From Chthonomonadales bacterium (GTDB lineage: Bacteria; Armatimonadota; Chthonomonadetes; Chthonomonadales; CAJBBX01): 47,507 nt of DNA. Positions 39,722 to 46,854 of the stretch are shown piece by piece. The notes beneath the pieces are model-generated. The model ran no database searches, was not told the origin of the DNA, and saw only the letters and a list, made by a program, of their open reading frames with translations. Both the position numbers and the translations under genes were made by a program. The first letter of the stretch is position 1, and every line of letters starts with the position of its first letter. The stretch covers positions 116,039 through 163,545 of the forward strand of contig JADLGO010000052.1 in assembly GCA_020849275.1 (NCBI GenBank), written 5' to 3'.

Positions 39722-40000
39722 CTAGGCTCCGCCGCCGGCCTGCGCTCTGTGGGCGCGGCGCATCAGCCGGGACTTCCGGCGCGCGGCGGCGTTGCGATGG
39801 ATGATGCCGCGCTCCGCCGTCTTGTCGATGACGCTGAGAGCCTCGCGCATCGCAGCTGGCACGGCGGCGGCGTCTCCGCCCTCGATGGCGGCCTTCGCCT
39901 TCTTGATGTGGGTCTTCATCGCGGACTTGGCGGCGACGTTGCGCAGTCGGTTCTTGCGCGACTTCTTCACATCCTTGATCATGGACTTGATGTTCGGCAC
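39722..40000 (-). CDS. rpsT: 30S ribosomal protein S20
   Basis: A 92-residue basic protein: MPNIKSMIKDVKKSRKNRLR opens it, and GIIHRNAAARRKSRLMRR is the conserved S20 motif near the end. S20 binds 16S rRNA helix 9/44 and is needed for early 30S assembly. The start is GTG at 40000, with a near-perfect AAGGAGGTGA at about 10 bases. It has its own promoter at 40029-40058. Confidence 0.97.
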   Translation of the reverse strand: MPNIKSMIKDVKKSRKNRLRNVAAKSAMKTHIKKAKAAIEGGDAAAVPAAMREALSVIDKTAERGIIHRNAAARRKSRLMRRAHRAQAGGGA

Positions 40001-40060: not shown

Positions 40061-40549
40061 TCAGAGCTCGAGCTTGTCGAATCGCCCCGCGGTCGGGTCG
40101 AGGGCGTCGCGTAGCTCATTGTAGGCTACTTCCACGCGCGCCAAGATGTCGCGGGCCGTCCGCTGTTCCTCGGATCCCTCGTCGAAGCGCTCCGGAGCAC
40201 AGCGGGCGGCAAGCCTTCGGTACTTGGCCTCGACCTCGGAGAGGTCGGCGCCCTCGTCGAGGCCCAGGACGCGGTAGTGTTGCGCGAGTGGGCCGACGGG
40301 CGCGACCGATTCCGGCTGCGGCGAGTCGGGCGAGGCGGCCGGCTTTCCGGCGGCGATCTCCTCCGGGGTTCGCGTGGGCTGCCGCGCCGCGCCCTCCCGC
40401 ATATCGCGCTCGTACTCGCGGCGGGCGTCGCGCTGGGCATGGCGCACATCGGCCTCGGCGGCCGCCTCGGCGTCGAGGCGGTCGAGCCGGTCCCTGATGG
40501 CGTTGATCTGCGTGAGCGCGATCGCACGCAGACGGCGTGATAGGCTCAT
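40061..40549 (-). CDS. J-domain-like protein without HPD motif (PspA operon)
   Basis: A 162-residue protein. The N-terminal 60 residues are charged helix (RLDRLDAEAAAEADVRHAQR). Residues about 88-150 resemble a J domain (HYRVLGLDEGADLSEVEAKY then RRLAARCAPERF), but the Hsp70-activating HPD tripeptide is replaced by CAP, so DnaK stimulation is unlikely. ATG 40549 has GGAGAGGA upstream and lies 30 bases after the coiled-coil membrane gene. It is probably the third gene of the PspA operon. The function is unknown, possibly a PspA adaptor or scaffold. Confidence 0.7.
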   Translation of the reverse strand: MSLSRRLRAIALTQINAIRDRLDRLDAEAAAEADVRHAQRDARREYERDMREGAARQPTRTPEEIAAGKPAASPDSPQPESVAPVGPLAQHYRVLGLDEGADLSEVEAKYRRLAARCAPERFDEGSEEQRTARDILARVEVAYNELRDALDPTAGRFDKLEL

Positions 40550-40579
40550 CGGTCCTCTCCGGCGCCGCGCTCGTTGCGC

Positions 40580-41416
40580 CTAGGGGTTCTGGCGCAGCGG
40601 CGCTGGCTCCTCGGCGGCCAGGGCCTCCGTGACGCTGGTATCCAGCAGGTCGATGTCGCTGTTGAGCGTTTCCAGCTCGCGGTAGAGCCCCTCGCTGACG
40701 CTGGCGGCGGCGGACATGTCGACCGTCTTAATGCGGAGGACCTTGGCCTTCCAGCTCGCGAAGGTCGCTTCGACGTTCTCGAGCTGGCTGTCGATGCGTG
40801 CCGTCGCCTGCGTGATCGCCTGATAGGTGTTGAGCTCCGCCTCGCGGGCCTTGAGCGCCTGTTCGTACTGAGCGCGCGCCACGCTGTCCGTCGTGCCGTC
40901 GATGCGCTGCCGCAGGTTGGCGCAGTAGCTGCGCAGTCCCCGCTCGTCCACGTGATGCAGGTAGCGCGCGAGCTGCTGCTTGCGCGTCGCCAGGCTGACC
41001 GCCCGCCGCACGAGCGCCGGCATCTGCGAGGCGATACGGTCCATGTCTCGGCGGGTGTACTCCTGCACATCGGGGGCCCGCGCCTCGCGCACGATCTCCT
41101 TCTGAAGCTGCAGCACGTAGCGCACGCGCTGCCGCGTCTCGAAGTCCATGCGCTCGAGGAGCTCCTCCACCTCCTGTTCGGTGATCTGCTCCTCGCGCTC
41201 CTGACGCTCCAGGAAGATGCGCCGCAGGTACTCCTCGTCGTGCAGGCGGCGCAAGAGCAGCGCGCCCTGCGCGATGGCGGCGACCACCAGGTACAGCCAC
41301 CAGCCGGTCACCAACGAAATGACCCCTCCCGCTGCCCAGAGTGCCAGCGAGAGGGGCGACCTCAGAACGTGCCTGGCGACGTACGAGAACTTCCCGGTGG
41401 TGGAGAGCTCTTGCAT
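40580..41416 (-). CDS. membrane protein with long coiled coil, PspA-operon partner
   Basis: A 278-residue protein. Residues about 20-55 contain two TM segments (SLALWAAGGVISLVTGWWLY, LVVAAIAQGALLL), followed by a long charged coiled coil (RRIFLERQEREEQITEQEVE ... EALKAREAELNTYQAITQA) to the end. It begins 6 bases after the pspA stop, so the two are very likely co-translated. I do not recognise a named family. The layout suggests a membrane anchor for PspA or a second ESCRT-III-like remodelling component, which is inference. Confidence 0.7.
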   Translation of the reverse strand: MQELSTTGKFSYVARHVLRSPLSLALWAAGGVISLVTGWWLYLVVAAIAQGALLLRRLHDEEYLRRIFLERQEREEQITEQEVEELLERMDFETRQRVRYVLQLQKEIVREARAPDVQEYTRRDMDRIASQMPALVRRAVSLATRKQQLARYLHHVDERGLRSYCANLRQRIDGTTDSVARAQYEQALKAREAELNTYQAITQATARIDSQLENVEATFASWKAKVLRIKTVDMSAAASVSEGLYRELETLNSDIDLLDTSVTEALAAEEPAPLRQNP

Positions 41417-41422
41417 CGGTGC

Positions 41423-42196
41423 CTACTGCCGGTTGAGCTTCTGCTCGAGCTCCCGGAGTTGCTGGTCGATGTCGTCGTCGCGTTTGGCCTGCGGGGCAGC
41501 GGTCTGCGTAACGACCGTCTGTGGCGCCCCGGCCCCCAGCCCGAGCTTGCCCTCCAGCTCGGCGAGAGCTTGGTCGGTACTGGCATCGACCTGGCTGTCC
41601 TCGAGGGAGTCCATACGAGACTGGAGGCTCGTTTTGGCGACCTCGGCCCGGGCCTGCGCCTCGGACTGCATGGACTGGATGCGCTCCTGGGCGCGGGTGA
41701 AGCTCTGGGACGAGTCGTCGCTCTGAAGGCCGTCCAGTGCCTTGTTGATCGCGATCTGGATCTGAGCCTGTTTCATGTTCGCCTTGAGCGTGAGGGCCTC
41801 GGCGGTGCGGATCTGGAAGCGCTCCTCCTCGCGACGCATCGCCTCCTTGATGGCCTCGGAGGTCTCCTCGGCCTGTTTGAGCGAGACGCGCAACTGCTCG
41901 AGAGTCTTGTCGTGGATCGCCTTTTCGCGGAGGATCTGCCGGGCGAGCTCACGGTTGCCCTGCTGAAGCGCCTGCGCGGCCTTCGCCTCGAGGTTGCGGC
42001 TGCGCTTCTCCTCCTGATCGACCATGGCAAGGAGGTTGTTCTTCTGCGTGATCGCTTGAACAGCGCGCTCGCGGTTCTTCGCCTGGTTCTCTCGCATCTC
42101 CCGGACGGACTCGTTGATGATGACCTCAGGGTCCTCCCACTGGTCCAGCTTGCCCATGATGAGCGCCCGAAGATAGCGGAAGAAACGCTTGAACAT
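41423..42196 (-). CDS. pspA: phage shock protein A / IM30 family (ESCRT-III-like)
   Basis: A 257-residue helical protein starting MFKRFFRYLRALIMGKLDQW, an amphipathic helix and PspA/IM30 motif, followed by EDPEVIINESVREMRENQAK, KNNLLAMVDQEEKRSRNLEA and heptad-rich coiled coil to the end. IM30/PspA proteins bind stressed membranes and polymerise like ESCRT-III to keep the proton gradient. ATG 42196 has GGAGGAG at 6 bases. It leads an operon with the membrane coiled-coil and J-like genes under a sigma-70 promoter at 42269-42297. No pspF or sigma-54 element is seen here, unlike enterobacterial pspA. Confidence 0.92.
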   Translation of the reverse strand: MFKRFFRYLRALIMGKLDQWEDPEVIINESVREMRENQAKNRERAVQAITQKNNLLAMVDQEEKRSRNLEAKAAQALQQGNRELARQILREKAIHDKTLEQLRVSLKQAEETSEAIKEAMRREEERFQIRTAEALTLKANMKQAQIQIAINKALDGLQSDDSSQSFTRAQERIQSMQSEAQARAEVAKTSLQSRMDSLEDSQVDASTDQALAELEGKLGLGAGAPQTVVTQTAAPQAKRDDDIDQQLRELEQKLNRQ

Positions 42197-44535: not shown

Positions 44536-44603
44536 ATGCTCGCCTGCTATGCCCAGGGCGGTGCTCTGGGCCCCCAGTCCCGATGCTCAGGAGGGAACCG
44601 GCC

Positions 44604-45356
44604 ATGCGAAAGTACGTGGTTCTGGCGCTGGGGATCGCCATCCTTGGCGCGTTTGCGGCTCCGGCGCGGGCGCAGGAAACGCCGCTGCCGGAGGCCACGG
44701 TCATCGTCGACGGAGTGTCCTATAGCCTGGACGTGCTCCGCGATGGCAAGCTCTTCATCATCGACCAGGCGCGCATCGTCACGCAGGGAGGAGACATCGT
44801 TGAGGTCGCCATGACTGGCGACCCGGACCCGAGCATCGCCTACGCCATCGGCGTGGTCGATATCGGATTGCCCAGCGCGTTCGGGTTCGCGTTCGGCATC
44901 CCGATCGTCTGCCCGGAACCCGCCACGATCGTCAGCTCCTCCATCGGCTACACGCTGACCGACGCCGGCGACGGCGCAGTCTCGCTGACGCCCCTGCCTC
45001 CGCCGGGGTTCGTGCCGGTGGACGGCGATCTGGCGACGGAGACCGCCGTGGGCACGCTCAGCCCGGACGGCGGCTTCACGCTGGTGAACATGGGTGTGGA
45101 CGTGGGGCTTGCGGCGGCCGCCGGGGGCGGCACCACGGTGCACGGTCCGTTCGCCGCCGGACCAATGGCCGGCCCGGCCGGTCCGTTCGATTCGCTGTTC
45201 GCGGACATCAACTTCCTGGGGTCTGGCGGAGGCGACGCCCTCAGCCTGACGGGCGCCCTCACCGTGGTATGCGTGCCGGAGCCGGGCTCGCTGGCGACGC
45301 TGGGCGTCGGGCTTGTCGCGCTTGGCGTGCTGGCGTACCGGCGCCGTAAGCCGTAG
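44604..45356 (+). CDS. PEP-CTERM sorting-domain secreted protein
   Basis: A 250-residue exported protein: signal peptide (YVVLALGIAILGAFAAPARA), a beta-rich, Gly/Pro-rich body (DLATETAVGTLSPDGGFTLV ... AAAGGGTTVHGPFAAG), and a C-terminal PEP-CTERM signal (VVCVPEPGSLATLG, hydrophobic helix, YRRRKP). ATG 44604 has CAGGAGGGA upstream. It is preceded by a sigma-54 element and followed by a hairpin terminator, so it is a single-gene unit. It is probably anchored by an exosortase encoded elsewhere. No catalytic motif is seen. Confidence 0.93.
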   Translation: MRKYVVLALGIAILGAFAAPARAQETPLPEATVIVDGVSYSLDVLRDGKLFIIDQARIVTQGGDIVEVAMTGDPDPSIAYAIGVVDIGLPSAFGFAFGIPIVCPEPATIVSSSIGYTLTDAGDGAVSLTPLPPPGFVPVDGDLATETAVGTLSPDGGFTLVNMGVDVGLAAAAGGGTTVHGPFAAGPMAGPAGPFDSLFADINFLGSGGGDALSLTGALTVVCVPEPGSLATLGVGLVALGVLAYRRRKP

Positions 45357-45550: not shown

Positions 45551-45952
45551 ATGCTATCCTGGAGACACGGGCTGAGATTCGCGATCGGTACCGCCGCCGC
45601 GGCCGGCGCGCTTTCCGCCGCCACGGGGCTGGCGGCCCAGAGCGCGGACCTCGCCCCACCGCAGATCTCGTTCGGCGCGCTACGCCCTGGAGCCACGGTC
45701 CGCGCGGACGCGTACGGCCGCGTGTTCGTCGCGGCGCGCGCCACCGACGACCGGGGCATCCGCGCCGTCGTCCTGAGCGTGCCCCATGCCAGCGCGGTCC
45801 TGACGCCGAGCCCGCCCACTCCGTGGGCCATGGCGCGCGCCATGTGGGACTCGCGGGAGGACCCGGCGGGGCCCTACACGATCACGTGCACCGCGACCGA
45901 CACAGCCGGCAAGGTGACGACGCAGGCGCTGCCCATCACGCTGGTGAAGTGA
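45551..45952 (+). CDS. small secreted Ig-like protein, paralog A
   Basis: A 133-residue protein: signal peptide (IGTAAAAGALSAATGLAAQ), then one beta-sandwich-like domain (PPQISFGALRPGATVRADAY, GRVFVAARATDDRGIRAVVL, TITCTATDTAGKVTTQALPI). Its body closely matches the product of 46456-46854 (shared motifs ISFG-L-P, V-L-SVPHA, ATLTPS-P, MWDS, YTITCTA-D-GKVTT--LPITL), so the two are tandem paralogs. ATG 45551 has GAGGAGG upstream. The single domain resembles Ig-like or HYR-type modules. It is probably periplasmic or surface-exposed; the function is unknown. Confidence 0.8.
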   Translation: MLSWRHGLRFAIGTAAAAGALSAATGLAAQSADLAPPQISFGALRPGATVRADAYGRVFVAARATDDRGIRAVVLSVPHASAVLTPSPPTPWAMARAMWDSREDPAGPYTITCTATDTAGKVTTQALPITLVK

Positions 45953-46455: not shown

Positions 46456-46854
46456 ATGTTGTTGGTAGTAAGCACGCGGACGGCGCTGGCGGTGGCCTCG
46501 CTGACCGCGATACTCTGTACGGCGACCGTGGTGAGCGCGCGAGCCGCCGAGACGCAGGCCCCGCGGATCTCGTTCGGTTCGCTGACCCCCTACGCCGTAG
46601 TCCGCCCCGACGCCTACGGGCGGATCTACATACCGGTCCGAGCGACAGACGACACGGGCCTCCAGAGCGTGGTGCTGTCGGTGCCGCACGCGACCGCGAC
46701 TCTGACGCCCAGCAACCGGCCGCCGTGGGCCCTGGTTCGGGCGATGTGGGACTCGGGCGACGACGCCGTCGGGGTTTACACGATCACCTGCACGGCGGTC
46801 GACGTTACCGGCAAGGTGACGACGGAGTCTCTGCCGATCACGCTGGCCAGGTAG
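46456..46854 (+). CDS. small secreted Ig-like protein, paralog B
   Basis: A 132-residue protein with a signal peptide (TALAVASLTAILCTATVVSA) and a domain homologous to paralog A (APRISFGSLTPYAVVRPDAY, GRIYIPVRATDDTGLQSVVL, YTITCTAVDVTGKVTTESLP). ATG 46456 is used because AAGGAG lies 10 bases upstream. It stands about 500 bases downstream of paralog A, with its own terminator at 46906. The function is unknown. Confidence 0.8.
   Translation: MLLVVSTRTALAVASLTAILCTATVVSARAAETQAPRISFGSLTPYAVVRPDAYGRIYIPVRATDDTGLQSVVLSVPHATATLTPSNRPPWALVRAMWDSGDDAVGVYTITCTAVDVTGKVTTESLPITLAR

What the first reader, a model, noticed from the sequence alone, without database searches (positions are those of the whole stretch)
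40061..42196. PspA operon with a membrane coiled-coil partner and an HPD-less J-like protein
PspA (ESCRT-III-like) is encoded 6 bases before a protein with two TM helices plus long coiled coil, then a degenerate J-like protein. None of the classical PspB, PspC or PspF partners is present. This may be a variant membrane-repair module in which a dedicated anchor and a non-Hsp70 J adaptor replace them.
Basis: partly seen in the sequence, partly recalled or inferred. Interest (0 to 1): 0.6.

Follow-up and report, generated by a model that had tools for sequence, protein, structure and literature searches.

The report
PspA operon with HPD-less J partner
In the little-studied bacterial phylum Armatimonadota, the membrane-repair protein PspA is encoded beside a dedicated J-like protein that has lost the motif needed to drive Hsp70, and often beside a membrane-anchored helical protein, which suggests an unusual way of controlling a bacterial relative of the ESCRT-III machinery.

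Summary
On the minus strand lie pspA (41423-42196), a two-TM helical-bundle gene "CC" (40580-41416, 6 bases downstream) and a J-like gene with APE in place of HPD (40061-40549), then rpsT. The genome (Armatimonadota, Chthonomonadales) has one PspA and no PspB or PspC; its five other J proteins all keep HPD.

The trio is conserved in order in all 13 family/sister-family genomes that carry CC, and again in more distant families. Directly adjacent or one-gene-apart PspA-J occurs in every listed genome of five families, even where CC is absent or replaced. CC-J pairs persist in two families where PspA lies elsewhere. Within one family, six genomes have all three genes and nine have none. HPD is lost in 42 of 44 homologues; the two exceptions sit in a distant PspA-CC-J trio. 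The PspAs concerned form one clade with a Vipp1-like C-terminal helix.

I read it as a variant Psp module: PspA as effector, CC as membrane anchor, and the J-like protein as an Hsp70-uncoupled regulator of PspA assembly, derived from something working like chloroplast CDJ2-VIPP1. The module is well supported. Physical contact and mechanism are inferred, not shown.

The parts
41423..42196 (-). pspA: PspA/IM30 (ESCRT-III superfamily) with a Vipp1-like C-terminal tail helix (DDIDQQLRELEQKLNR)
   Evidence: Pfam PF04012 E 1.5e-35; aligns over residues 1-256 to Synechocystis Vipp1 sll0617 including its tail IDQELDDLRRRLN
40580..41416 (-). CC: two N-terminal TM helices plus cytoplasmic helical bundle, proposed membrane anchor of PspA
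   Evidence: AF2 pLDDT 85; hydropathy; no curated family; conserved in all 13 listed trio genomes of its family and sister family
40061..40549 (-). HPD-less J-like protein: basic N-terminal helix, linker, J-fold domain (residues about 89-150, APE in place of HPD), conserved C-terminus RFDKLEL
   Evidence: Pfam DnaJ 29.1 bits; J-domain structure matches; alignment
39722..40000 (-). rpsT (ribosomal protein S20), next gene downstream, same strand; conserved neighbour in the family, probably not part of the module
   Evidence: Pfam PF01649 E 7.9e-27

Best explanation
The locus encodes a variant phage-shock (Psp) membrane-maintenance module. PspA is the polymer-forming effector. CC sits in the inner membrane through a TM hairpin with its helical bundle in the cytoplasm and recruits or nucleates PspA there. 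The J-like protein is a dedicated PspA partner that uses its J fold and conserved RFxxLEL tail as a binding surface to regulate PspA assembly without stimulating Hsp70. It descends from a PspA-linked J co-chaperone that still had HPD, as two distant trios do today; that ancestor would have worked like chloroplast CDJ2, which with HSP70B assembles and disassembles VIPP1. Shown here: gene linkage, co-occurrence, HPD loss, predicted J fold, predicted TM-hairpin topology, Vipp1-like PspA tail. Inferred: all protein contacts, the membrane-stress role, and assembly control by the J-like protein.
For: PspA and J lie within 2 kb on one strand in all listed genomes of f1 11/11, f2 2/2, f3 16/16, f6 8/8 and f24 5/5 (coordinates). 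CC-J are adjacent in f14 10/11 and f28 3/3, where PspA is elsewhere. In f19, six genomes have PspA, CC and J and nine have none. Across 188 genomes of the J-bearing families: both 155, PspA only 13, J only 5, neither 15 (not corrected for phylogeny). HPD is kept in 2 of 44 homologues, while all five other J proteins of this genome keep it. The PspAs with J form one clade, support 99/98, and carry a C-terminal tail helix that aligns with Vipp1's. HSP70B/CDJ2/CGE1 catalyse VIPP1 assembly and disassembly (PMC10602608). An HPD-less J-like domain, CJD1, failed to bind Hsp70 or replace DnaJ yet bound another protein (PMC3196505).
Against: No contact or function was measured, and no complex prediction was possible. 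PspA tail and J share a single origin on the tree, so their correlation is one event. In 11 f14 genomes PspA is present with no recognisable J, so J is not always needed. In f14, and in most f29 genomes, J is not next to pspA. The CC fold match is only a generic helical bundle, and CC evolves fast and is missing in f3. The amphipathic character of the J N-terminal helix is mostly not significant against shuffles.
Confidence: 0.5

Rival explanations
1. The J-like protein still works through Hsp70 indirectly: like Pam16 with Pam18, it pairs with a canonical HPD-bearing J protein of the cell and so places or restrains DnaK at PspA.
For: J-like/J pairing is known for Tim16-Tim14, and CJD1 binds ARC6 through J-like regions (PMC3196505). 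The genome has five HPD-bearing J proteins.
Against: No canonical J gene was seen in the cluster.
Confidence: 0.2
2. The J-like protein and CC form their own unit (CC is the receptor of J) that serves a membrane process other than Psp, such as protein insertion, with PspA only co-regulated with it.
For: CC-J pairs occur without pspA next to them in f14 and f28, next to other genes such as a hisS-like gene.
Against: PspA-J adjacency persists in f3 and f24 with no CC, and across an unrelated inserted gene in f6 and f15. The three genes co-occur or are missing together in f19.
Confidence: 0.2
3. Ordinary co-transcription: the genes are neighbours by descent in a slowly rearranging phylum, with no joint function.
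For: rpsT, holA and a transglutaminase gene are also conserved neighbours in the family.
Against: Linkage is kept across families while the other neighbours change, the pair survives insertion of unrelated genes, and joint absence occurs.
Confidence: 0.1

Closest known systems
Chloroplast VIPP1 with co-chaperone CDJ2 and HSP70B (Chlamydomonas; PMC10602608)
   Same: A PspA/Vipp1-family polymer with a dedicated J-domain partner; the PspA here has a Vipp1-like C-terminal helix.
   Different: CDJ2 acts through HSP70B; here HPD is lost, the gene is operonic with pspA, and a membrane helical-bundle partner is added. Orthology of the J proteins was not tested.
Bacillus subtilis pspA-ydjGHI (PMC8581546)
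   Same: pspA operon whose membrane proteins (YdjG, YdjH) anchor a PspA complex.
   Different: No SPFH or zinc-ribbon protein here; CC was not compared directly with YdjG or YdjH and matches no curated family; no J-like protein is involved there.
Classical enterobacterial PspF-PspABC system
   Same: PspA as effector; membrane partner(s) encoded downstream.
   Different: No PspB or PspC in the genome and no PspF above its cut-off.
J-like (HPD-less) proteins such as Pam16/Tim16 and CJD1 (PMC3196505)
   Same: J fold without HPD, linked to membrane machinery.
   Different: Different partners; here bacterial and linked to PspA.

Membership tests
PspA/IM30 family | Match to PF04012 above the gathering score | tested here: met
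   123.3 bits against 33.9
PspA/IM30 family, Vipp1 type | C-terminal extension helix after a linker | tested here: met
   Tail aligns with sll0617; present in PspAs of the J-bearing families sampled, eroded in a few. The tree used Armatimonadota sequences only, so orthology to Vipp1 was not tested
Classical Psp system | PspB and PspC partners | tested here: not met
   PF06667 and PF04024 absent from the 99.9% complete genome
Classical Psp system | PspF activator | tested here: not met
   Best TIGR02974 match 283.9 bits against cut-off 443.6
J-domain co-chaperones (DnaJ family) | J fold | tested here: met
   Pfam DnaJ above cut-off; predicted structure matched mainly by J domains, Foldseek probability up to 1.00, though no E below 0.001
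J-domain co-chaperones (DnaJ family) | HPD tripeptide between helices II and III | tested here: not met
   APE here; HPD in 2 of 44 homologues
CDJ2-type VIPP1 co-chaperone | Binds the PspA/Vipp1 protein and stimulates Hsp70 | not testable with these tools
   Only gene linkage is shown; HPD loss argues against Hsp70 stimulation
PspA/ESCRT-III paralogue (for CC) | Profile similarity to PspA | tested here: inconclusive
   hhalign probability 0.7%; no relation detected

The most novel reading that the evidence does not exclude
A bacterial ESCRT-III-like protein is controlled by a dedicated J-like protein that has cut its tie to Hsp70, together with a TM-anchored helical-bundle receptor: an ATPase-independent regulator of PspA assembly that took the place of a CDJ2-like Hsp70 co-chaperone.
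Probability: 0.35. Interest if true: 0.75.

Novelty: new variant of a known kind. Interest (0 to 1): 0.58.

Why it matters
A recent survey of Psp systems states that it is unknown how PspA homologues without an associated AAA ATPase regulate their assembly (PMC11237479). A J-like protein that travels with PspA across a phylum, with distant relatives that still carry HPD, gives a direct way to test whether an Hsp70-type cycle was the original assembly control and how it can be dispensed with. The main texts of the two Psp surveys read here do not mention DnaJ, J-domain or Armatimonadota; their supplements were not read.

Tried and rejected
CC as a divergent PspA paralogue: profile comparison gave 0.7% probability. 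CC fold by Foldseek and VIA-align: only designed helical bundles, BAR-like and other long-helix proteins, Z up to 13, below what counts for helical bundles; a BAR-like reading was not adopted. Gene fusions among the trio as contact evidence: the long open frames around PspA in the f14 cases checked were extensions with no similarity to CC or J, so no fusion was found. Phage or defence families: none. Cross-phylum search: two alignments were too variable for the genome-contig scan; the scan that ran gave seven loci, five titled Chthonomonadales, Chthonomonas or Armatimonadetes and two titled only 'bacterium', so occurrence outside the phylum is untested. PspA tail and J presence as independent evidence of interaction: rejected, since both map to one clade. 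Three early calls failed because I gave reversed coordinates.

Full report
Observation. PspA is a clear PF04012 member and J-like just passes the DnaJ cut-off. CC has no curated family in Pfam, NCBIfam, PHROGs or PADLOC.

The genome. The window is the end of a contig of a 4.8 Mb, 99.9% complete genome. Several of its relatives appear in public records as Chthonomonadales, Chthonomonas or Armatimonadetes, so the phylum is Armatimonadota. It has one PspA, no PspB or PspC, and no PspF above cut-off. It has six DnaJ-type domains; the other five carry HPD and only this one lacks it.

Conservation of the trio. In the window's family and a sister family (f1, f2) all 13 genomes with CC have PspA-CC-J in that order. 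The same order recurs in the more distant f19 (L041, L117), f31 (L107) and f9 (L042, L127).

What is the core. A search of 291 Armatimonadota genomes, with adjacency computed from the listed places, shows that PspA-J linkage is the more general feature. In f3 (16/16) and f24 (5/5) J directly follows pspA with no CC between. In f6 (8/8) a gene for a secreted, outer-membrane-like protein lies between in the two genomes read, and in some f15 genomes a class II glutamine amidotransferase-like gene does (these two names are read from the sequences, not from a family search). In f14 and f28 pspA is elsewhere but CC-like and J genes stay adjacent (10/11 and 3/3). CC is also next to pspA in f20, f13, f22 and f43, on either side. 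The match lists for PspA and J were cut at weaker scores, so these counts cover the listed genomes only.

Co-occurrence. In f19 six genomes have all three genes and nine have none. Over 188 genomes of the J-bearing families, counting J at E 1e-11 or better, I tallied by hand 155 with both, 13 with PspA only, 5 with J only and 15 with neither (Fisher p 7e-11). This is not corrected for phylogeny or genome incompleteness, and where the genes are adjacent one assembly gap can remove both.

HPD loss. At the HPD site 42 of 44 homologues differ, most reading D-P-x followed by R-F; the two with HPD are f9 (L042, L127), which are also PspA-CC-J trios. The f9 PspAs fall outside the clade of PspAs linked to the HPD-less J. 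The simplest reading is an ancestral HPD-bearing PspA-linked J protein that lost HPD in the main lineage; the root of the tree was not established, so this is inference. The J-bearing lineage gained or kept a C-terminus of the form RFxxLEL that f9 lacks.

PspA type. PspAs of the J-bearing families form one clade (99/98) and carry a linker plus a tail helix of the form DxDxQLxELExKL, eroded in a few, which aligns with the tail of cyanobacterial Vipp1. PspAs of families without this J lack it in the sampled cases.

Structures. CC is predicted well (pLDDT 85): two TM helices (21-37, 41-59), then helices to 267. Basic residues flank both ends of the hairpin, so the bundle should be cytoplasmic (inference from sequence). 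Fold searches found nothing specific. The J-like model (pLDDT 74) has a long N-terminal helix 2-53, a disordered linker, and a J fold that matches mainly J domains. The N-terminal helix resembles PspA's helix alpha-0 in pattern, but its amphipathicity is mostly not significant against shuffles, so membrane binding of J is only a suggestion.

Mechanism. I propose that CC recruits PspA to the membrane and that the J-like protein regulates PspA assembly as a binding protein without Hsp70. In chloroplasts HSP70B/CDJ2/CGE1 catalyse VIPP1 assembly and disassembly (PMC10602608). In B. subtilis membrane proteins YdjG/YdjH anchor PspA (PMC8581546). An HPD-less J-like domain (CJD1) neither bound Hsp70 nor replaced DnaJ, but bound another J-like protein (PMC3196505), which also motivates the rival in which J-like pairs with a canonical J protein.

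Novelty. Two Psp surveys do not mention DnaJ, J-domain or Armatimonadota in their main texts, and a full-text search for Armatimonad with PspA found one paper, on an unrelated gene family. Subscription papers and supplements were not available. I rate this a new variant of a known kind.

Noticed in passing
L193 1173-2192 (G193:C49): An HPD-less J-like domain of this type (CDPSRF) is fused to what reads as an adenylate/guanylate cyclase catalytic domain, so the HPD-less J fold is also used as a module outside the PspA locus.
   Followed up: partly
window 45551-45952 and 46456-46854: Two similar small secreted proteins (about 132 aa, Ig-like look) in tandem on the plus strand, a likely duplication.
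   Followed up: no
window about 44580-45356: Protein ending in a PEP-CTERM-like sorting signal (VPEPGSLATLGVGLVALGVLAYRRRKP).
   Followed up: no
L042 7465-8253, L127 4246-5025, L043 4989-5759: PspAs of f9 and f20 end in RNLEL, RNLEI or RNIEV, reminiscent of the RFDKLEL end of the J-like protein in other families; f9 J proteins lack that end. Possibly coincidence.
   Followed up: no
L119 5583-6380: PspA-like fragments in several frames upstream of an intact CC-J pair: a broken pspA or assembly errors.
   Followed up: no
L110-L112: In f14 the CC-like and J genes follow a hisS-like gene and one further gene, away from pspA.
   Followed up: partly
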